Below are positions 1 to 15,628 of a stretch of 20,537 nt of DNA, piece after piece. The notes under the pieces were generated by a model. It ran no database searches. It was not told where the DNA came from and worked only from the letters and a program-made list of their open reading frames with translations. Origin of the DNA: a virus; IMG/VR virus record IMGVR_UViG_3300031565_000481, positions 1 to 20,537 of that record; one strand, written 5' to 3'. Position 1 is the first letter of the stretch. Each line of letters opens with the position of its first letter. A program made the translations under genes and the position numbers.

Positions 1-2737
1 GTTCCCAACCCTCTTCTGCACCTTGGAATTCTACTTGCCAATTTCTACCCTGTATTATAGTTTGCTTACCAAATCCAATGTCGATATTTTGTTCTGCGGC
101 GGTCGGGTCCATTCTCTTTAAATGTTTCACTAAATCTAATAGCAAAAACTTAGAATCAAAATGGAGCCAAGCTTTATCGGATCCTGATGTTCTTTCGATT
201 GAATCCATTTTAAGTCCCGGAAAGTTTCTAAGGTGCTTTGCTAGTTGAGTAAGATTAATTCCTGAGGATGCTTCTGTAACATGCTCTTCACCAATGCCAA
301 CGTCAGGAACATCACCTGTACCTGCAACGGTAGTCAATTTTCCACGCCCACGCGCAGGGTTAAACGCAGCAATTTTTTTCATTAGTTTGTTATAGTGCCT
401 CATGCTTAACTTACCAAACTTCTTAGTAAGCTTAATTGAACGGGCAGCTAAACTATGTAAATCCATATCTGTTTTAGCATCTTCCCTAGCAAACTCTAAC
501 ATACGAATAAACAATGGGACGTCAACTGTAATGCTATCAACTTTATCGCCTTCAGTAACTGCAGGGTTTGTAGGCACTATTTGTTGCCCGCCTTTCTGTC
601 TGTAACCTAATACTGTGGATGCATCATTTACTTGATCTAAATATTTTGCTTCTGCGTCTGGACTATGTCCTTGCATTGCTAATGCGGCTTCGCTAGCATC
701 TTTAATAATAAACTGTAGTTTATTATGTGGAAGTGTGTGGTAAGGATGACCTTTCAACGGCATAGCAAGACGACCCCTCCTAGCCTCAGGATGCTTGTGC
801 ATTCCGCCCGTCTTCTCATTGCGTCCACCGGCCCAACCATATGCTGTTCGGAAATGTTTTGCTTCATCTAATTCAGTTTCATTGTAACCTTTCATAGGAA
901 CTTTTTCAATTGGAACATCGCTAAAACCTTTGCGGTTATAAGCATCAGCTATTTTAGATGCAAGTTCTACGGGCGCTCCCATTGTAGATGTTACAATCTG
1001 TTTACCGTCACTAGTAACGCCAATAATTTTAGAAACTTTATCACTCACACCAAGTGCATAAAAGTGATCGAATGGTACTTCGTGTCCTTTAGCAAGGTGA
1101 GGTAAAACTCCCGTCTTACGCTGTGGATCATACAACGGAATAGAATCTGCTACGTCTGGTTGACGTTGATATTTGTCTTTACCTTTTTGTGCTTGCTTAG
1201 TGGCAAATTTAGTTTGAATAACATCACTATCTCCGGATTGACCACTGCTTTTTTTAGCACCAAAGTCTACAGGTACTACATCACCTTCATTTGTGTTGTT
1301 TTCAATTGCTGGTAAATCCAAATCAAACTTTAATCTTATAATATTTCTCAACTTATCATACTTTTCAACAGTTGAAAAAATAAGTACAGTATATATTGCA
1401 TTGTTTCCCACTCCTGGGGAAGGATACATTTTCCTCCCATCAGACGAATCAAATATATATTCGTCTTTTTTTATTCCAACGAGTTTTAAATAATTAGGTT
1501 TGGCTATGGTCCTCACAATATTATTAACTAATATCATTGGAACTACTATATATGTTTCGCCCTTAATTGGTTTGTCTGACATGTTAGACAGCGACCTAAA
1601 ATAGTCAACTGAACTTTCTTTATTAGACTCAGTTAAATTACCTTTTATGCAATATTCCTCAAATATTGACATTCTATCTTTCATACTCATTTCGTTGCCC
1701 AGGCTATCCCAAGTAAATTCTCGTCCTTCGGTCGCCACACTCTTAAAAAATTTATGTTGTTTCAATTGGTGCTCCCTTTCATCTCTGGAACTGCCGGACT
1801 TCTTCATCTGTCTTAGGACGTTTTTAATACGGTCATCGTCGAACTTGTCGATTTGAGTTTTACGTTCGCCAGTTGGGGAAACAGTAAATGCATGTTCATT
1901 TACGTTAATTTCTGGTAAATGGAAATTATACTTTAACTTTATAATATTTCTTAATTTATTGTATGATTCAATATTTGAAAAGGTAAATGTTCCTGTTGTT
2001 GATACTCCTCTTAATTGCGGAGCCGGAAATATTATTTCTCCACCGGATGAATAAAATATTAATCCAGTTATACCATTTCCTAAAAATTTCATGTAACTAG
2101 GTGGGTTTAAAGATGTTACTCTATTATCAATTAATACCAATGGAACGACTATATAGGTCTGATTCTCAATAGGATCATCTGACATATTAAATAACGACAT
2201 AAAATATTCCCTACTATTTTCGTCATTGGATTCTATTATATTACCTTTAGTATAGTATTCTTCAAATATTCTGAGTTTATCTTCTACACTCAATCCCTCG
2301 CCCAAATTATTCCAATCTAAATCCTCTAAAGGTTTATCGTCATCATCTTCGACTTTTTCAATTTGATTAAAGCGTACATACCAACCACGGTCATTTTCGT
2401 CGCCGATCCAAGCTTTTCCTGGTTTGTTACCGACTTGACTTACAGTAAAGGTTTCATCCCCTCTATCTGCATATTTAGATGTTAGTTTAACAATGTCGCC
2501 GTTCTTAAATTCGTCTTTTTCTGTTTCTTCACTAACCCAGTCTTTAGCTTGATTATATGCTTCAATGTTATCGAATGTTATTTCAACGTAGTCGCCTAAT
2601 ATATTTTCGTCTATCCAAGTAAGACCATCCATCTGTAGCCATTTTTTAAGCTGGGAGAGAAGTTCGTGGGACACTGTTACCTTACCGGAAAAGCCGTCTT
2701 CAGTTAATGTTTGATCAGAAAAATCAACAACTTTCAT
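1..2737 (-). CDS. Very large phage protein with SH3-like and duplicated domains (partial, runs off left edge)
   Basis: An open frame runs from ATG at 2737 to base 1 without a stop, giving at least 912 codons; the C-terminus lies outside the window. The ATG sits one base after the TAG of the upstream gene, so the two are co-transcribed. Visible layout: an N-terminal segment (1-70) with a YVEITFDNIEAYNQ strand-helix; an SH3/KOW-like stretch (about 77-130, with GDIVKLTS and GWYVRF); a domain present twice (137-286 and 338-488); a central region; and a conserved-looking block around 640-720 containing RLAMPLKGHPYHT and FIIKDASEAALAM. From memory, the latter type of block occurs in long uncharacterised proteins of marine T4-like phages; this was not checked. 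No catalytic motif is recognised. Its position after two probable virion or membrane genes suggests a virion or DNA-injection role, which is inference. Confidence 0.85.
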   Translation of the reverse strand, partial: MKVVDFSDQTLTEDGFSGKVTVSHELLSQLKKWLQMDGLTWIDENILGDYVEITFDNIEAYNQAKDWVSEETEKDEFKNGDIVKLTSKYADRGDETFTVSQVGNKPGKAWIGDENDRGWYVRFNQIEKVEDDDDKPLEDLDWNNLGEGLSVEDKLRIFEEYYTKGNIIESNDENSREYFMSLFNMSDDPIENQTYIVVPLVLIDNRVTSLNPPSYMKFLGNGITGLIFYSSGGEIIFPAPQLRGVSTTGTFTFSNIESYNKLRNIIKLKYNFHLPEINVNEHAFTVSPTGERKTQIDKFDDDRIKNVLRQMKKSGSSRDEREHQLKQHKFFKSVATEGREFTWDSLGNEMSMKDRMSIFEEYCIKGNLTESNKESSVDYFRSLSNMSDKPIKGETYIVVPMILVNNIVRTIAKPNYLKLVGIKKDEYIFDSSDGRKMYPSPGVGNNAIYTVLIFSTVEKYDKLRNIIRLKFDLDLPAIENNTNEGDVVPVDFGAKKSSGQSGDSDVIQTKFATKQAQKGKDKYQRQPDVADSIPLYDPQRKTGVLPHLAKGHEVPFDHFYALGVSDKVSKIIGVTSDGKQIVTSTMGAPVELASKIADAYNRKGFSDVPIEKVPMKGYNETELDEAKHFRTAYGWAGGRNEKTGGMHKHPEARRGRLAMPLKGHPYHTLPHNKLQFIIKDASEAALAMQGHSPDAEAKYLDQVNDASTVLGYRQKGGQQIVPTNPAVTEGDKVDSITVDVPLFIRMLEFAREDAKTDMDLHSLAARSIKLTKKFGKLSMRHYNKLMKKIAAFNPARGRGKLTTVAGTGDVPDVGIGEEHVTEASSGINLTQLAKHLRNFPGLKMDSIERTSGSDKAWLHFDSKFLLLDLVKHLKRMDPTAAEQNIDIGFGKQTIIQGRNWQVEFQGAEEGWE
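1274..1726 (-). repeat. Internal domain duplication, copy 2 (residues 338-488)
   Basis: Second copy of the domain, separated from copy 1 by about 50 residues rich in charged amino acids. It keeps W343, IFEEY, KGN, NMSD, TYIVVP and KLRNII in the same spacing as copy 1 (offset 201 residues). It is also AT-rich (12 G+C in 60 bases from 1321), in contrast to the 36 in 60 bases from 781 further along the same gene. Confidence 0.85.
1880..2329 (-). repeat. Internal domain duplication, copy 1 (residues 137-286)
   Basis: First copy of a roughly 150-residue domain inside the large left-edge protein. Shared landmarks with copy 2 include IFEEY, KGN, NMSD, TYIVVP, KLRNII and LPxI. By hand alignment, 37 of 68 residues are identical over the first half, with no gap. 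The DNA is very AT-rich here (16 G+C in the 60 bases from 2161). Confidence 0.85.
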
Positions 2738-6582: not shown

Positions 6583-7203
6583 TTAGTTATTTTTCCAGCC
6601 AAACTTGATTACTTTGTGTCTAGCAGACTGTTTATAATGCCAGTGAACGTCTGTGAATGTGCCCATACTGTCGAGCATTCTACTTATTCTTTCTGCCATG
6701 TCCATTAGCTCATTCGGTTCAATATCATACAAATTAGTTAATGCACGACGCACATGACTAACCACACCTTCTTGTACTCTTAAGTCTGATTGTAATTGAT
6801 AGAATAAGGATCTATCCTGGGACTGCTGTACGGGCCCGCGATTTCCTATAGCTAATTCCTGAAAATAACGTTTTAACGCCATCATCGGCACACTAATTCC
6901 ATTGTCGTTTGATAAACGTATTCTAACTTCCCAGTCCGTCAGTGCAGCAATTAAATTGTGTAAGTCGGTAGCATAACTTCTTATTCCTTTGAAGCTGCCG
7001 TAATGGAATGTATCCTTCGAATACTTTTGAACGTAATATGGATCGACAATTCGAAGTATTTCTAGCATTAGTAGATTAAGAAATAAAATCTTAGCAAGCT
7101 CGCTCACGGACTTGCCCTTTAACTCCGATTCATATCTAAATAAACGAGCTTCGGTTAACTCCTCGATAAACTTACAAGGATGATTGCTTACGACTTCTTC
7201 CAT
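6583..7203 (-). CDS. Unknown helical phage protein (206 aa)
   Basis: The ATG at 7203 lies within the last 16 bases of the upstream gene, so translation is likely coupled. The protein is predominantly helical (ELAKILFLNLLMLEILRIV, LHNLIAALTDWEVRIRL, MALKRYFQELAI) with a basic C-terminus ending KFGWKNN. The leucine-rich helix at about 36-55 looks amphipathic rather than membrane-spanning. No motif is recognised. It closes the operon that carries the replication enzymes and the ligase-like gene and is followed by an 80-base regulatory gap before the 107-aa gene. Confidence 0.75.
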   Translation of the reverse strand: MEEVVSNHPCKFIEELTEARLFRYESELKGKSVSELAKILFLNLLMLEILRIVDPYYVQKYSKDTFHYGSFKGIRSYATDLHNLIAALTDWEVRIRLSNDNGISVPMMALKRYFQELAIGNRGPVQQSQDRSLFYQLQSDLRVQEGVVSHVRRALTNLYDIEPNELMDMAERISRMLDSMGTFTDVHWHYKQSARHKVIKFGWKNN

Positions 7204-8450
7204 CGCGCCGCATTTACCGAACTAAATTGGATTCTGTCTACTAGTTTTACTGCGGTACCATAATGACCTACCACAACAAATCCTTCCGGATTGGTAACTG
7301 TATAACCAGCACCTTCTTTTCTAAACGTGCTAATCATCGAGTCAATGGAATTTAGTTTGTTGATTAACATCAGCTTGAGGTTGATGATTTGCTGATAGAT
7401 AGCAAGGATTCCCAGCATTACATTCATATTGTCCTCGACAAATTTCTCTTGCTGCTTAATCTTATATAATCTGTTCTTCATAGTAGCCGTTAATTCGTCG
7501 CCTACCGGAGTATTCTCTTGCCCTAATACTTTCGTACTATAGAACTTAATGTAGCCCTTCAAAAAGCTAATTGGATCGGTGATGTTCTTCCTTGCCCAAA
7601 CCAAACTGTTAATATATGGCTTAATAAATCTAGCAAATTCTTTGTTTTGGACTACGATGTTGAACTTAGCAGGTGCTAGCTTTTGGATAGTATTGCGTAG
7701 TTTGTCGATGGAAGTTAATAAGTGTTGATTCTCTTCCGGCGTTAAACTTGCTCTACCAGTCAAGTCTTTGTACGAGGAATCATCGTACCAAACATCGGGT
7801 GTATCATTCAGTCCCTGTATGTTTGCTCCTAACGTTGCTCGCATAGTAGGCAAGCTTGATCCTCTGTATGAAGTGTGGAATGCAATCCCTAACTTTGCTC
7901 GCAATATCGCTTGTCCCACGTCGCTCTTTATAGGAGCAGCATAGGTTATTGTATTTGGGGTGAAGGTAACCACTGCTTGACCGTCGATTACGTCCTCAGC
8001 TTTTGAGTCTGCAAGGAATAATAGATCTCCTTGAAGTACTCCAGTAATGCCTAGCTTTTTAAGATACTTGAATGCGCCAAGTAGTTTCTCTTTAAACTCT
8101 GGATCTTTGTCTTTATAAAATTTAGTGATATCCTTCGGCGACTTGATAAGCTTTGGAACTTTAATTGAGAACGCAGATTTTGTTCCGATAAAGAACTTGC
8201 CATCCTCTGGATCAACTCCGGTAACTATTGCCGGCGAGCCGTCCCACTTGTTTGTAATTTTGACAGGTTTGTCTCCGGAACCTAGTTCCAACATTCTTCG
8301 AACGTCGTTTAAAAAGTTAACTGCGGCGGTCGCGCCGTCGTATCCCTCATTGTATACTAAGTCTTCTATGTGTTCTAAATGCGTTAACTTTTCGACTTTA
8401 GCTTCAACAATAAACTGTCTGACCGGGTTATTAAATTCATTTAACTGCAT
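7188..8450 (-). CDS. Ligase-fold nucleotidyltransferase-like phage protein (420 aa)
   Basis: The start ATG at 8450 overlaps the TAA of the upstream gene (TAATG). Motifs of the covalent nucleotidyltransferase superfamily (RNA/DNA ligases, capping enzymes) appear in the right order: motif I K68-W-D-G71; a motif III-like GVLQGDLLF (137-145); a beta strand VTFTPNTITY (161-170) in the motif IIIa position; motif IV E389-G-F-V; and a motif V-like AVKLVDR with K402. A helical insertion of about 150 residues (240-385) lies between motifs III and IV. The N-terminal THLEHIEDLVYNEG segment resembles a phage family I remember as DUF6267, unverified. Probable role: RNA or DNA end joining or nucleotidylation in infected cells. 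Motif V has one clear lysine rather than the usual pair, so activity is uncertain. Confidence 0.8.
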   Translation of the reverse strand: MQLNEFNNPVRQFIVEAKVEKLTHLEHIEDLVYNEGYDGATAAVNFLNDVRRMLELGSGDKPVKITNKWDGSPAIVTGVDPEDGKFFIGTKSAFSIKVPKLIKSPKDITKFYKDKDPEFKEKLLGAFKYLKKLGITGVLQGDLLFLADSKAEDVIDGQAVVTFTPNTITYAAPIKSDVGQAILRAKLGIAFHTSYRGSSLPTMRATLGANIQGLNDTPDVWYDDSSYKDLTGRASLTPEENQHLLTSIDKLRNTIQKLAPAKFNIVVQNKEFARFIKPYINSLVWARKNITDPISFLKGYIKFYSTKVLGQENTPVGDELTATMKNRLYKIKQQEKFVEDNMNVMLGILAIYQQIINLKLMLINKLNSIDSMISTFRKEGAGYTVTNPEGFVVVGHYGTAVKLVDRIQFSSVNAARWKKS

Positions 8451-8704
8451 TATTCAGTGCCCTTATTCTTAATCCGCTTAATACCTCTGGTGAATTTGCT
8501 ACCATCATGCGCCCTAATGCTATTAATAAGTCTACGTTCTAACTCATCAGCTTCGTCCCTAGTAAAGTTTTCTTTAATAAAGGTCAAAAGGTTAATGGCA
8601 CTTTGTATGAGATTAGTTGCTTTGCTCTCTACAAAATGGGTTTTATCCTTAGATAAAAATAAATCGTCAAGCTCTGTTAATAGACTCTTAGTTTTCTTCT
8701 GCAC
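8450..8704 (-). CDS. Small helical phage protein (84 aa), unknown
   Basis: The start is GTG at 8704, with GGAG seven bases upstream; no ATG is available nearby. The protein is entirely helical and highly charged (LTELDDLFLSKDKT, ENFTRDEADELERR) with a basic C-terminus (KFTRGIKRIKNKG). It is coupled to the ligase-like gene by a TAATG junction, so the two are probably made together; a small partner or nucleic-acid-binding subunit for that protein is possible but unsupported by any motif. Confidence 0.7.
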   Translation of the reverse strand: MQKKTKSLLTELDDLFLSKDKTHFVESKATNLIQSAINLLTFIKENFTRDEADELERRLINSIRAHDGSKFTRGIKRIKNKGTE

Positions 8705-8730: not shown

Positions 8731-9423
8731 TTAGTTATGATGAATTGGAGGTCCGTGTCTAGTAAATGAATCAGCTTTTATACGACCTCCTTCTATGGAA
8801 TAATGCGGGTGCAGCCTAGCTAGATTTGGGAAAGTGGTTTGTATTTTTACTAAGTTCTTACCAATTTGGTGATCAGCCGGCAAATATCCGTGTTTATGAC
8901 AGCTATCTATTAGGTTTTGAGCGGCATGTGGCTTGATAATATAAGCGTATGCTCCGCGTAAATATTCGCCATGTAACGTATTTGGTTTGCACTTGGGATT
9001 GTTATATTCCTGTATTACGAGCAGTGAGTCCAATTTGATATGTTGTTCGTAATTATTGCTAAATTGATCGTAAGGATCCAAATTAAGCACATCATCAAAT
9101 CTATCAAGTATGTTCTTAGGAACGTCCCTCATTAGCAATCCGTCGTGCTCAAAAATTGCGATAGGATGGTTTAGTGTTACGCATTTCTTCCAAAGAAAGT
9201 AGTGACTAAGGAAACAACCTTTAACGCCAGGCTTAGACGCTTTTGATTTTACTTTAAAAGGTTTAAGTTCTAGGGATTCTAAAATGGGATCGGCAACATG
9301 ACCATTTATTCCTGCAAAGGGTTCAATTTGAACTCCATGTTTCTCTCCCGCCTCTATACAATCGCGGGCTAAGTCTTCACTAAGTTTTACTCCTGCAAGT
9401 CTTATTATATAGCCATTAAGCAT
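8731..9423 (-). CDS. Glycosyltransferase family 25 (LPS-type) protein
   Basis: The 230-aa sequence has the GT25 (Glyco_transf_25) pattern in order: N-terminal YIIRLAGVKLS strand; GCFLSHYFLW (69-78), the family's conserved G-x3-SH-x3-W; an acidic IFEHDG (90-95) in the place of the usual EDD metal-binding motif; GAYAYIIKPHAAQNLI (157-172); and P182-A-D184 near the end of the core. Such enzymes transfer hexoses from nucleotide sugars to lipooligosaccharide or protein. Here H93 sits between E92 and D94, a small departure from the norm. The ATG at 9423 overlaps the helicase stop by 8 bases, so it is co-translated with replication genes. It may modify phage DNA, capsid or host surface sugars; the target is not visible. 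Confidence 0.85.
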   Translation of the reverse strand: MLNGYIIRLAGVKLSEDLARDCIEAGEKHGVQIEPFAGINGHVADPILESLELKPFKVKSKASKPGVKGCFLSHYFLWKKCVTLNHPIAIFEHDGLLMRDVPKNILDRFDDVLNLDPYDQFSNNYEQHIKLDSLLVIQEYNNPKCKPNTLHGEYLRGAYAYIIKPHAAQNLIDSCHKHGYLPADHQIGKNLVKIQTTFPNLARLHPHYSIEGGRIKADSFTRHGPPIHHN

Positions 9424-12379: not shown

Positions 12380-12394
12380 AATTGAAATTTGAAT

Positions 12395-12769
12395 ATGGAT
12401 GAACTTGAACTTAAATCACTGTTAGAGAAGTACCCGTTTATTAGTTTTTTGACGTATGGGAAAAACGAATATATTGGCATCATACAAAATGTAGATCAAT
12501 ATGTGACCAATGTCTACGACTACAGTAAATTAGTGACAGTAGAGCAAAAAAACAGGTTTTTAATACTAGGTGAGCAATGGTGGTGGGAAAGTAATAGGTT
12601 AATTCCAATCAACATATTTCTCAAGCAAGATTGGACCGAGTTTAGGATTAGCTTGCGCACGTTTAATACTAAGGACGTTGTTATCAAGTTTGGTCCGCAG
12701 GTAAGCATTAGCCAAATAGCAAATAAGAGAATTAAACGGAAGCAGATCGTCCTAGTTAAAAAACTCTAG
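12395..12769 (+). CDS. Lone plus-strand phage protein (124 aa), unknown
   Basis: The only convincing plus-strand gene. ATG at 12395 is preferred over TTG at 12389; neither has a Shine-Dalgarno sequence. The sequence has balanced protein-like composition: DELELKSLLEKYPFISFLTYG, then beta strands (EYIGIIQNVDQYVTNVYDY), a striking WWWESNR (57-63 of this start), a strand pair ending DVVIKFG and a very basic C-terminus (KRIKRKQIVLVKK). The small beta-rich centre and basic tail would fit nucleic-acid binding, but no family is certain. Its stop TAG abuts the stop of the opposite gene with no space between, and no terminator is seen, so its transcript probably reads antisense into the DnaE-like gene. 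Confidence 0.8.
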   Translation: MDELELKSLLEKYPFISFLTYGKNEYIGIIQNVDQYVTNVYDYSKLVTVEQKNRFLILGEQWWWESNRLIPINIFLKQDWTEFRISLRTFNTKDVVIKFGPQVSISQIANKRIKRKQIVLVKKL

Positions 12770-13952: not shown

Positions 13953-14632
13953 TAAAAGCCTCCGTCGCTCAATGCTTTCTTAATAAGTTCAGTATCAGCC
14001 ATATAGTCTATAAAGTGCCTCTGCCAATATGATGGATCAATCCATTTAAATATGTACTGCACTTGTTCTTCATTCAATTCCTCTAAGAACTTTATGCCCG
14101 TGTCACAATTATAAAGCGCCCACGGACTTATCTTCCCTAATGTAATATAGTAGCATATTTTATTCTCATTTCCTAGCCAGAAAACATGGTTAAATTCAGC
14201 ATCGTTTTCTATGCCCCACTCCACGGTGAATTCCACAAATCGTTCTATTGCTTCTTCTGCTTTTTCCTTTCTCAAATAATTGTGTAGGAATTCTTCGTAC
14301 ATATCATCCCTACACCACTTATCCAATTTCTTATTTTGTTTAATTATCCAATCAATAAACAGTGCAGGAGCAACTGCATTAATCTTTTTAATGTGTTTAC
14401 CAAACTTGACAAAGGCAGTGTAATACGGGCTAGTGCTAAAGTCTTCGTGTGTCTTTAACTTAGAGGTGCCCTGTGTTAATTCAAAAAAACGTAGGTATGT
14501 TTGAAATCCTATTTGCACACCAGGATCATTCTTTTGGAAGAATCTCTTTTTCTGCTCACAGTTGTGGACTTGAAGAGTGCTTTCTCTTCTAAAAAACTTC
14601 CCGCAAAATGTACAACTTAGTTCGTCTGCCAT
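13952..14632 (-). CDS. Zinc-finger phage protein (226 aa)
   Basis: The N-terminus has a classical-finger-like C7-x2-C10-x12-H23-x-C25 (CTFCGKFF ... STLQVHNC), followed by a basic EQKKRFFQK stretch. The remaining 190 residues are helical, with ALFIDWIIKQNKKLDKW, a YEEFLHNYLRKEKAEEAIERF helix pair and SPWALYNCDTGIKFLEELN. A nucleic-acid- or protein-binding role is suggested by the finger; the large domain is not recognised, though it looks like a protein I remember as common in marine T4-like phages. The ATG at 14632 lies in the last 16 bases of the SDR-like gene. It may regulate replication or transcription; evidence for this is only the finger and its location. Confidence 0.75.
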   Translation of the reverse strand: MADELSCTFCGKFFRRESTLQVHNCEQKKRFFQKNDPGVQIGFQTYLRFFELTQGTSKLKTHEDFSTSPYYTAFVKFGKHIKKINAVAPALFIDWIIKQNKKLDKWCRDDMYEEFLHNYLRKEKAEEAIERFVEFTVEWGIENDAEFNHVFWLGNENKICYYITLGKISPWALYNCDTGIKFLEELNEEQVQYIFKWIDPSYWQRHFIDYMADTELIKKALSDGGF

Positions 14633-15168
14633 CTTCCTTGTTGAAACAACATATCCTCGATGTGGATTTTACTACTTATAACGTAGTCCACTAGCTTACA
14701 CATTTCATCCATTTCTATATAATGTTCTGGCTTAACTGTTCTCAATACCCGCTCCGATGCAAAGTAACTAGGGCGTATTAGGATTATTTTACACACAGGA
14801 TTTAGCTTCCTGAGGTTCTTACATGCTGCATCTAATCCGAATTTCTCAGCGTAGTATTGATTTGGTTCGCTATGGAAATCATCTGTTGTATGACTACCCA
14901 CAGTTAAAATAATTTTCTGCTTGTCTTTCCATCTATGGTATAACTGATACAACAAGGAAACCTGTGCTGTTACTGGCAATGCATTGTTGATAAACACATC
15001 TGCATCATCAGCTAACGTAAGTACTTCCTGCATTTTAAACGGAAGGATATATCCTAACGACCTAGAGAATCCTGAGACCTCGTGTCCAGTATTTATAAAG
15101 TGCTCATATAATGCTGCACCCAATCCCTTAGTATGACCAGTTATTGCAATTTTAAGCTTTGATGTCAT
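14617..15168 (-). CDS. Short-chain dehydrogenase/reductase-fold protein (183 aa)
   Basis: ATG at 15168 is chosen over the upstream ATG at 15198 because it has GGAGG close by and overlaps the upstream gene by only 17 bases. SDR hallmarks are in order: T10-G-x3-G-L-G17 nucleotide-binding turn after a KIAI strand; NNA at 61-63; S92 after ILTV; and Y105-x3-K109 (YYAEK), the catalytic pair. At 183 aa it is shorter than typical 250-aa SDRs, mostly in the substrate-binding C-terminus. It may reduce a nucleotide sugar or other small metabolite, or be an NAD(P)-sensing protein; the substrate cannot be read. Its placement inside the replication operon is unusual. Confidence 0.8.
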   Translation of the reverse strand: MTSKLKIAITGHTKGLGAALYEHFINTGHEVSGFSRSLGYILPFKMQEVLTLADDADVFINNALPVTAQVSLLYQLYHRWKDKQKIILTVGSHTTDDFHSEPNQYYAEKFGLDAACKNLRKLNPVCKIILIRPSYFASERVLRTVKPEHYIEMDEMCKLVDYVISSKIHIEDMLFQQGRWQTN

Positions 15169-15628
15169 AGTCCTCCAGCAACTGTTTGAACTCCTCATCA
15201 GTCATAAGCTCACCCATTAAGTCTATGTTTGATAATTTCTCGTTGGGATACAGTTTTTGCAATACCTTAGTTTTGCTCTTAGTGCCTTTGGACTTTCCTG
15301 AGGGTATCGGAACCCATGCGTGAAATTGCATGCCTACGTTGGGACTAATAGTGCTAAGAACTAACCATTGTAATCCAAAATGCTTAGACCCAATGTCGAA
15401 AAACATTTTGTTGGCGCGTTTATTTGCTGCTATTAAGTAATATGCTTGAAGGTCTGCATTGCCAGTTACTGAACTGGCATACCTTAATCCCAAATACCCG
15501 CTAAACTTTTTCTGTTCTTCTGCTGTTAGCCGATCGAAAAAACCTCTGTCTTTGCGATCTATCGCATTACAAAGATCCTTTATGTTAACCCCGGGTTTCG
15601 TCGTTTTTTTGGGTGATGGCATAAGCAA
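15152..15628 (-). CDS. Conserved-type phage protein, possibly gp62-like clamp-loader small subunit
   Basis: The start is either TTG at 15628, with AGAGG seven bases upstream, or ATG at 15622, which has no site at proper distance. The layout recalls T4 gp62: an N-terminal basic tail, a helix with a NAIDRKDRG turn (compare GAINNK in gp62), a YASSVTGNADLQAYYL helix, a central LQWLV, a lysine-rich loop (SGKSKGTKSKTK) and a C-terminal LYPNEKLSNIDLMGELMTDE. T4 gp62 is 187 aa and this is 158. No gp44-like ATPase or gp45 clamp gene is in view, so the assignment is tentative. The operon position between uvsW and the primase fits a replisome component. Confidence 0.5.
   Translation of the reverse strand: MLMPSPKKTTKPGVNIKDLCNAIDRKDRGFFDRLTAEEQKKFSGYLGLRYASSVTGNADLQAYYLIAANKRANKMFFDIGSKHFGLQWLVLSTISPNVGMQFHAWVPIPSGKSKGTKSKTKVLQKLYPNEKLSNIDLMGELMTDEEFKQLLEDYDIKA

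What the first reader, a model, noticed from the sequence alone, without database searches (positions are those of the whole stretch)
7188..8450. Ligase-type nucleotidyltransferase motifs in a phage gene of unknown function
Seen: KWDG at 68-71, GVLQGDLLF, EGFVVV at 389 and AVKLVDR in the right order for motifs I, III, IV and V, with a helical insertion of about 150 residues between III and IV. Known: K of KxDG becomes AMP- or GMP-linked in ligases and capping enzymes. If right, this is a divergent RNA/DNA ligase or nucleotidylating enzyme with an unusual insertion.
Basis: partly seen in the sequence, partly recalled or inferred. Interest (0 to 1): 0.65.

Follow-up and report, generated by a model that had tools for sequence, protein, structure and literature searches.

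The report
Phage RNA-ligase-like enzyme, probably virion-packaged
A gene shared by hundreds of marine and freshwater T4-like phages, until now labelled 'unknown function', looks like a highly divergent RNA-ligase-type enzyme, and in this phage and its nearer relatives it also carries a tag like the one T4 uses to pack proteins into the virus head for injection into the host.

Summary
The ORF is on the minus strand (8450->7188, 420 aa) with KWDG 68-71, GVLQGDLLF 137-145, EGFVVV 389-394, AVKLVDR 400-406. It belongs to DUF6267/PHROG_455, an uncharacterised family in about 465 phage records, mostly T4-like cyanophages. K68, D70, G71, K91, D142, E389, G390, K402 and R406 are invariant. The compact relative without the extra helices gives a confident AlphaFold model. 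Its top 16 PDB neighbours are all DNA/RNA ligase-type nucleotidyltransferases, T4 Rnl2 second, though none is individually significant. Profile comparison aligns motifs IV-V with T4 Rnl1 in register, above 33 null profiles. So a divergent covalent nucleotidyltransferase is likely, but not a member of a named ligase family: motif III has Asp, motif V lacks its second Lys, and no OB or RNA-binding domain follows. New here: long forms carry a disordered N-terminus matching T4's capsid-targeting propeptide (L/I-x-E cleavage site), as do nearby cytidylyltransferase, kinase and phosphatase genes. Three such cytidylyltransferases are reported in virions by mass spectrometry. Best reading: an RNA-end-sealing-type enzyme that this phage packs in its head and injects. 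Fold likely; ligase chemistry and packaging inferred. Two published cyanophage virions whose DUF6267 is a form without the tag do not list it.

The parts
7188..8450 (-). DUF6267 / PHROG_455 gene, 420 aa, divergent ligase-type nucleotidyltransferase (long form)
   Evidence: Pfam E=1e-92, PHROG E=2e-84, AF2 pLDDT 87 pTM 0.84
8403..8450 (-). Residues 1-16 MQLNEFNNPVRQFIVE: putative capsid-targeting propeptide with a gp21-type cleavage site IVE|A
   Evidence: Disordered in the model (residues 1-20 pLDDT<50); 59 of 68 distinct N-terminal extensions of homologues keep [LIVMF]xE[ASGD] versus 7.5 expected by shuffling
8361..8381 (-). Residues 24-30 HLEHIED: invariant HxxHxE(D) motif unique to the family
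   Evidence: H24, H27, E29 invariant
8238..8249 (-). Residues 68-71 KWDG: motif I, candidate nucleotidyl-lysine K68
   Evidence: Invariant K, D, G
8175..8180 (-). Residues 91-92 KS: motif Ia-like
   Evidence: K91 invariant; S92 S/G/A
8016..8042 (-). Residues 137-145 GVLQGDLLF: motif III-like strand, with Asp142 in place of the usual Glu
   Evidence: Q140 and D142 invariant; strand 138-146 in the model
7866..7877 (-). Residues 192-195 HTSY: invariant HTxY, possible motif IIIa equivalent
   Evidence: H192, T193, Y195 invariant; motif IIIa assignment is inference by analogy to His195 of viral RLIG1 (PMC11494293)
7353..7739 (-). Residues 238-366: helical region between motifs III and IV, enlarged relative to short forms
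   Evidence: Helices 238-257, 260-267, 270-285, 293-309, 322-340, 342-366 in the model; shorter in L132 short form
7269..7286 (-). Residues 389-394 EGFVVV: motif IV
   Evidence: E389, G390, V392 invariant; aligned in register with T4 Rnl1 motif IV by hhalign
7233..7253 (-). Residues 400-406 AVKLVDR: motif V-like, second Lys replaced by Val, followed by invariant Arg
   Evidence: K402 and R406 invariant, V404 V/I
8450..8704 (-). Upstream gene, 84 aa, PHROG_11854 'head and packaging, virion structural protein'; its stop overlaps the DUF6267 start (TAATG)
   Evidence: PHROG E=2e-15; sequence; homologues (cluster c10) in 22 of 80 related contigs
6583..7203 (-). Downstream overlapping gene, 206 aa, no family; N-terminus also has LTE|A
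   Evidence: homologues (cluster c16) in 15 of 80 related contigs, 12 of 15 with the site in their first 30 residues

Best explanation
The gene encodes a divergent member of the covalent (lysyl-NMP) nucleotidyltransferase superfamily that contains RNA and DNA ligases. Most likely K68 attacks the alpha-phosphate of a nucleotide (probably ATP) to form lysyl-NMP, and the enzyme then activates and seals an RNA 5'-phosphate end, so that it works like an RNA ligase in repair of cleaved RNA (for example host tRNA cut by anti-phage nucleases). In long forms such as this one the N-terminal ~16 residues are a T4-type capsid-targeting propeptide, so the enzyme is packed into the prohead, trimmed by the phage head protease after IVE|A, and ejected into the host with the DNA, as T4 Alt and the internal proteins are. 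Shown by computation: motif conservation, fold resemblance by rank enrichment, and the propeptide pattern. Inferred: catalysis, nucleotide used, RNA as substrate, packaging and injection.
For: Invariant K68-x-D-G, K91, D142, E389-G390, K402 and R406 in long and short forms. Short-form model pLDDT 91, pTM 0.84. Its top 16 PDB neighbours are all ligase-type nucleotidyltransferases: archaeal DNA ligases, T4 Rnl2, LIG1, the NHEJ ligation complex, REL1, Naegleria Rnl, tRNA ligase. In BFVD the family members come first, and most of the named hits among the lower ranks are RNA/DNA ligases. hhalign against 82 Rnl1-type sequences scores 28.5 (30.5 with long forms only), P 0.0045-0.0087, with motif IV-V in register; the best of 33 null profiles scores 23.3. 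Propeptide: 59 of 68 distinct extensions carry the site, shuffles expect 7.5, other ORF families 34 of 221. The T4 capsid-targeting layout M..[FYL]..[FYWLM][LI].E is in 30 of 80 long forms, 0 of 71 short forms, 40 of 67 CTP_transf-like proteins, 24 of 1429 other ORFs and 1 of 795 internal segments; layout and L/I-x-E cleavage rule from PMC9026906. Neighbouring kinases, HAD phosphatases and cytidylyltransferases in homologous loci carry the same tag, and one kinase and one HAD match PHROG polynucleotide kinase families (E=2e-6 and 4e-5). Tagged cytidylyltransferases were found in S-SM1, S-SZBM1 and S-CREM2 virions (PMC3037559, PMC9146016, PMC10665884).
Against: No individual structural or profile match is significant: Foldseek best E 0.096, none useful for the window model itself, no PDB sequence match, no hhalign signal to Rnl2. 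Motif III has Asp for Glu, motif V lacks the second Lys, and no OB-fold or RNA-binding domain follows motif V. Many neighbours of the wider family are nucleotide-metabolism-like (cytidylyltransferase, adenylate kinase, 5'-nucleotidase), so RNA repair is not the only reading, and no kinase or phosphatase was recognised next to the gene in this window. DUF6267 of S-SZBM1, which lacks the tag, and the short-form DUF6267 of S-CREM2 are not in the printed virion lists. The strict ten-residue tag is absent from the window protein, which has a 16-residue variant, and 23 of the 59 sites have Asp after the cleavage Glu, whose effect on cleavage is unknown here.
Confidence: 0.55

Rival explanations
1. 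It is an active covalent nucleotidyltransferase but not a ligase: it transfers NMP from K68 to a host protein or a small molecule, working with the neighbouring cytidylyltransferase/NMNAT-like enzyme in nucleotide or NAD metabolism or host takeover.
For: Recurrent adjacency or fusion to CTP_transf_like proteins; PHROG_455 spans both domains; other neighbours are adenylate kinase and 5'-nucleotidase-like; no nucleic-acid-binding domain; family-specific invariant HxxHxED and HTxY.
Against: Nearest folds are all polynucleotide ligases, not capping or other enzymes; the best profile match is to Rnl1; minimal ligases without an extra domain exist (RLIG1, PMC11494293).
Confidence: 0.27
2. Nucleotidyltransferase fold retained, but a non-catalytic or structural role, for example in head assembly.
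For: Asp for Glu in motif III and loss of the second Lys in motif V; gene next to PHROG_11854 head protein; putative prohead targeting.
Against: All residues expected to touch nucleotide, including K68, are invariant across family members at 26-49% identity to the window protein, unlike a degenerate enzyme; the family members of S-SZBM1 and S-CREM2 are not in the printed virion lists, so the family is not generally structural.
Confidence: 0.1
3. Chance resemblance: the motifs fall in the right order by accident in an unrelated fold.
For: No significant individual Foldseek, HMMER or hhalign match.
Against: Sixteen of sixteen top PDB hits belong to one superfamily; motif columns are among the most conserved in the family; motif IV-V aligns in register with Rnl1 above all nulls.
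Confidence: 0.06
4. The N-terminal extension is not a capsid-targeting sequence; the enzyme is an ordinary cytoplasmic protein made during infection. (This rival concerns only the packaging part and can hold together with the ligase reading.)
For: Short forms have no extension and presumably function without it; the gene lies close to replication genes; no virion data for tagged DUF6267.
Against: Statistics; the three tagged cytidylyltransferases checked are reported in virions; upstream overlapping gene is a head protein family.
Confidence: 0.35

Closest known systems
Pfam DUF6267 (PF19782) / PHROG_455
   Same: Full-length homology, all conserved residues
   Different: Nothing structural; no function had been assigned in either library and no paper in the held library uses the Pfam name. 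The fold, mechanism and propeptide reading are new here.
T4 RNA ligase 1 family (Rnl1, PF09511)
   Same: KxDG, a Lys in motif Ia position, EG motif IV, K of motif V; best profile-profile match, motif IV-V in register
   Different: No Pfam match; Asp in motif III, second motif V Lys missing, no C-terminal domain, large helices between III and IV
T4 RNA ligase 2 family (Rnl2)
   Same: Second-best Foldseek hit for the short form (2hvr, prob 0.54)
   Different: No profile signal; Rnl2 has KxHG-type motif I in this phage set, this family KxDG
RLIG1 (C12orf29 and viral homologues)
   Same: Minimal nucleotidyltransferase without an RNA-binding domain; His in motif IIIa, one Lys named in motif V (PMC11494293)
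   Different: No direct sequence comparison was made; Asp instead of Glu in motif III; large helical region; this family is phage-restricted
T4 Alt and internal proteins IPI-IPIII (capsid-targeted, ejected)
   Same: Short N-terminal propeptide ending L/I-x-E, aromatic or Leu at positions 4 and 7 in many homologues (rule from PMC9026906)
   Different: Cargo is a ligase-type nucleotidyltransferase, not an ADP-ribosyltransferase or nuclease inhibitor; packaging not shown experimentally
T4 Pnkp + Rnl1 tRNA repair
   Same: Some homologous loci combine this gene with P-loop kinase and HAD phosphatase genes (both in 5 of 80)
   Different: Separate genes, several bearing capsid-targeting-like N-termini; not found next to the gene in this window

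Membership tests
DUF6267 (PF19782) | Score above Pfam gathering threshold over most of the profile | tested here: met
   311.6 bits versus cutoff 27, profile 2-371 of 376
Covalent nucleotidyltransferase superfamily (ligases, capping enzymes) | Motif I KxDG with conserved Lys | tested here: met
   K68, D70, G71 invariant
Covalent nucleotidyltransferase superfamily (ligases, capping enzymes) | Motifs III, IV, V in order with canonical Glu (III), Glu (IV), KxK (V) | tested here: inconclusive
   IV met; III has Asp142; V has K402 then V404 instead of Lys
Covalent nucleotidyltransferase superfamily (ligases, capping enzymes) | Nucleotidyltransferase fold | tested here: inconclusive
   Top 16 PDB neighbours of the short form all in the superfamily, none significant alone; window model no hit
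Covalent nucleotidyltransferase superfamily (ligases, capping enzymes) | Lysyl-NMP intermediate | not testable with these tools
   Needs labelled NTP assay
T4 Rnl1 family | Match to the family model or significant profile similarity | tested here: not met
   No Pfam RNA ligase hit for the window protein or any of 41 short-form members; hhalign P 0.0045-0.0087, probability below 8%
T4 Rnl2 family | Significant profile similarity | tested here: not met
   hhalign probability about 0.1-0.3%
ATP- or NAD-dependent DNA ligase | OB-fold domain with motif VI after motif V | tested here: not met
   Protein ends 14 residues after R406; the model shows one helix there
T4-type capsid-targeted internal proteins | 10-19-residue N-terminal propeptide ending L/I-x-E | tested here: met
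   MQLNEFNNPVRQFIVE|A, 16 residues, I-V-E; 59 of 68 homologue extensions; length and rule from PMC9026906
T4-type capsid-targeted internal proteins | Presence and cleavage in the virion | not testable with these tools
   No virion proteome of a tagged DUF6267 phage found; homologues of S-SZBM1 and S-CREM2 not listed in those virions

The most novel reading that the evidence does not exclude
Aquatic T4-like phages pack a pre-made enzyme kit into the head (this ligase-like nucleotidyltransferase, a cytidylyltransferase/NMNAT-like enzyme, polynucleotide-kinase-like kinases and HAD phosphatases), each tagged with a T4-type capsid-targeting propeptide, and inject it so that RNA cut by host defences is repaired before any phage gene is expressed.
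Probability: 0.25. Interest if true: 0.88.

Novelty: new variant of a known kind. Interest (0 to 1): 0.62.

Why it matters
DUF6267 is widespread in T4-like cyanophages in public records and occurs in pelagiphages and methylophages, viruses of some of the most abundant aquatic bacteria, yet it has no assigned function. A ligase-type nucleotidyltransferase assignment gives a testable catalytic residue (K68) and substrate class. The capsid-targeting reading would explain why metabolic-looking enzymes keep turning up in cyanophage virions and would link head assembly to immediate counter-defence. A divergent minimal ligase could also be a useful reagent.

Tried and rejected
Single-sequence search of viral contigs found no relatives; alignment-based search did. 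Sequence and profile searches of PDB chains gave only chance hits. Foldseek of the full window model gave no useful hit, probably because of the long helices, so I folded the short form. hhalign with small ligase profiles was uninformative, so deeper ones and a null set were built. S-CREM2 gp160 (297 aa, in virions) looked like a candidate virion DUF6267 by length but is unrelated; the real gene lies at 58914-59762. I considered the kinase/phosphatase neighbours as proof of tRNA repair and toned this down, because Pfam calls several of them adenylate kinase, Zeta-like or 5'-nucleotidase. A motif-conservation count on 150 sequences is partly circular for motifs I, IV and V, because those motifs were used to pick the sequences; searches are the evidence used for them. 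A loose cleavage-site scan of the HTVC008M genome was only mildly enriched (27 of 179 versus 8.4% background), so the stricter test was used. The genome-contig scan shows no clear cellular homologues: 17 loci, nearly all in metagenome-assembled genomes and so probably phage contigs.

Full report
What is there. Its start overlaps the stop of an upstream 84-aa gene as TAATG; that gene matches PHROG_11854, a head and packaging family. A 206-aa gene of no known family overlaps its end. The surroundings are a T4-like phage: DnaB-type helicase, primase, UvsW-type helicase and an AAA-like protein. No tRNA or Rfam RNA was found.

Family. The protein is Pfam DUF6267 (E=1e-92) and PHROG_455 (E=2e-84), both of unknown function. 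tblastn finds it in about 465 of 50,697 phage records, nearly all T4-like cyanophages, plus pelagiphage HTVC008M and Methylophilales phages. In 84,980 prokaryote species genomes only 17 loci appear, nearly all in metagenome-assembled genomes, which I read as phage contigs. There are long forms (about 400-420 aa) and short forms (about 295-310 aa). In cyanophages the gene usually sits beside a cytidylyltransferase-like gene and is sometimes fused to it.

Is it a nucleotidyltransferase? In 42 long and short forms at 26-49% identity to the window protein, the invariant columns include K68, D70, G71, K91, D142, E389, G390, K402 and R406, along with family-specific H24, H27, E29, H192, T193, Y195, N281, K359, F409 and N413. 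The short forms were collected with peptide patterns that did not include KxDG, so motif I invariance there is not a selection effect. AlphaFold gives confident models for the window protein (pLDDT 87, pTM 0.84) and a short form (pLDDT 91, pTM 0.84). Foldseek of the window model against the PDB is uninformative. Foldseek of the short form has no match below E=0.001, but its first sixteen hits, out of 350,542 chains, are all ligase-type nucleotidyltransferases: Thermococcus, Pyrococcus and Sulfolobus DNA ligases, T4 Rnl2, human LIG1, the NHEJ ligation complex, trypanosome REL1, Naegleria RNA ligase and fungal tRNA ligase. In the viral library, family members come first, and most of the named hits among the lower ranks are RNA and DNA ligases. 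A profile comparison with 82 Rnl1-type sequences scores 28.5 (30.5 for long forms alone), aligning motif IV-V in register; the best of 33 unrelated profiles scored 23.3; Rnl2 gave nothing. I take the fold as likely, about 85%, and catalysis as probable.

How it differs from known ligases. Motif III carries Asp142 where ligases have Glu. Motif V is K-L-V-D-R, with the second lysine replaced by valine and an invariant arginine two residues further on. The chain ends 14 residues after that arginine, so there is no OB fold and no Rnl1- or Rnl2-like C-terminal domain. RLIG1 is a precedent for a working RNA ligase with only the nucleotidyltransferase domain (PMC11494293). The helices between III and IV span about 130 residues here and are an enlarged version of a region all members have. 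It therefore works like a ligase-type nucleotidyltransferase, as far as sequence and fold can say, but is not a member of Rnl1, Rnl2 or the DNA ligase families by the tests made here.

The N-terminal tag. Residues 1-20 are disordered in the model. In long forms this extension varies in sequence and length but almost always ends in a hydrophobic-x-Glu site: 59 of 68 distinct extensions, against 7.5 expected from shuffling and 34 of 221 other ORF families. This is the cleavage rule of the T4 head protease gp21, L/I-x-E, and T4 internal proteins are targeted to the head by 10-19-residue propeptides in which positions 4 and 7 matter for targeting and 8 and 10 for cleavage (PMC9026906). A pattern of that layout occurs in 30 of 80 long forms, none of 71 short forms, 40 of 67 cytidylyltransferase neighbours, 24 of 1429 other ORFs and 1 of 795 internal segments. 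T4 gp22 (LIAE|A) and gp24 (LLRE|S) from the T4 record show the same kind of site. The tagged cytidylyltransferases of S-SM1, S-SZBM1 and S-CREM2 are all reported in virions by mass spectrometry (PMC3037559, PMC9146016, PMC10665884; N-termini). The untagged DUF6267 of S-SZBM1 (gene 141) and the short-form DUF6267 of S-CREM2 (58914-59762) are not in those papers' printed virion lists. This fits a tag-dependent model, but no virion data exist for a tagged DUF6267. The window protein has a 16-residue version, MQLNEFNNPVRQFIVE|A, not the strict ten-residue layout. A caveat: 23 of the 59 sites have Asp after the Glu, and I do not know whether the phage protease accepts it.

Company it keeps. In related contigs the neighbours include P-loop kinases (10 of 80), HAD-type phosphatases (12 of 80), both together in 5, and cytidylyltransferases (28 of 80), several with the tag. 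One kinase and one HAD protein match PHROG polynucleotide kinase families weakly; Pfam calls others Zeta-like/AAA_33, adenylate kinase or 5'-nucleotidase. This is compatible with RNA end repair as in T4 Pnkp plus Rnl1, and equally with nucleotide or NAD metabolism. None of these enzymes was recognised next to the gene in the window itself.

Verdict. Motifs: confirmed. Fold: likely. Covalent lysyl-NMP chemistry: probable, untested. RNA as substrate: the best single guess, about even. Head packaging of this long form: more likely than not, by sequence pattern only. Novelty: a new, divergent variant of a known kind of enzyme in a family that had no function, with a possible new delivery route.

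Noticed in passing
L023:3818-4534, L031:3528-4211, L056:6241-7182, L082:6369-7040, L084:8305-10503: P-loop kinases (Zeta_toxin/AAA_33, GGPG[SA]GK) beside DUF6267; several begin with a capsid-targeting-like peptide (L082 MKQFLTHLSE|G), possibly a phage family of packaged kinases.
   Followed up: partly
L031:2954-3538 and L066:4801-5385: Adenylate kinase (Pfam ADK E=1e-38 in L031) starting MKTFRDFIFE / MKSFRDFIFE, that is, an adenylate kinase with a T4-like capsid-targeting N-terminus.
   Followed up: partly
L028:6507-7223, L072:6607-7206, L057:7132-7815, L023:4544-5071, L056:7475-7846: HAD-type phosphatases beside DUF6267; L028, L023 and L056 carry tag-like N-termini (METFGEFLTE|G, MKTLLEYLSE, MKTFNQYILE).
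   Followed up: partly
L074:6212-6721: 170-aa ORF starting MKTFKQMLYE followed by KIKLYHQTSDKNLTNIRKQGIKLS, which to the eye resembles an ADP-ribosyltransferase (compare T4 Alt); no Pfam match.
   Followed up: partly
L007:3989-6172 (JN371769, metaG-MbCM1): Annotated 'NrdB ribonucleotide reductase A subunit', but the protein is DUF6267 fused to a CTP_transf_like domain; the annotation looks wrong.
   Followed up: yes
window 2-2737, minus strand: 912-aa ORF running off the window edge with an internal repeat (two copies of a segment around 'EEYYTKGNIIESN' / 'EEYCIKGNLTESN'); N-terminus MKVVDFSDQTLTE|D also looks tag-like; no Pfam match.
   Followed up: no
window 8731-9423, minus strand: Glycosyltransferase family 25 (LPS-type, Pfam E=8e-16) between the helicase and the head-protein/DUF6267 pair.
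   Followed up: no
window 12389-12769, plus strand: 126-aa plus-strand ORF with a TTG start among minus-strand genes; matches PHROG_11637 (E=1e-31, unknown function), so it is probably real and oppositely transcribed.
   Followed up: no
window 14617-15198, minus strand: 193-aa short-chain-dehydrogenase-like ORF (weak match to a phage FabG family, E=2e-4).
   Followed up: no
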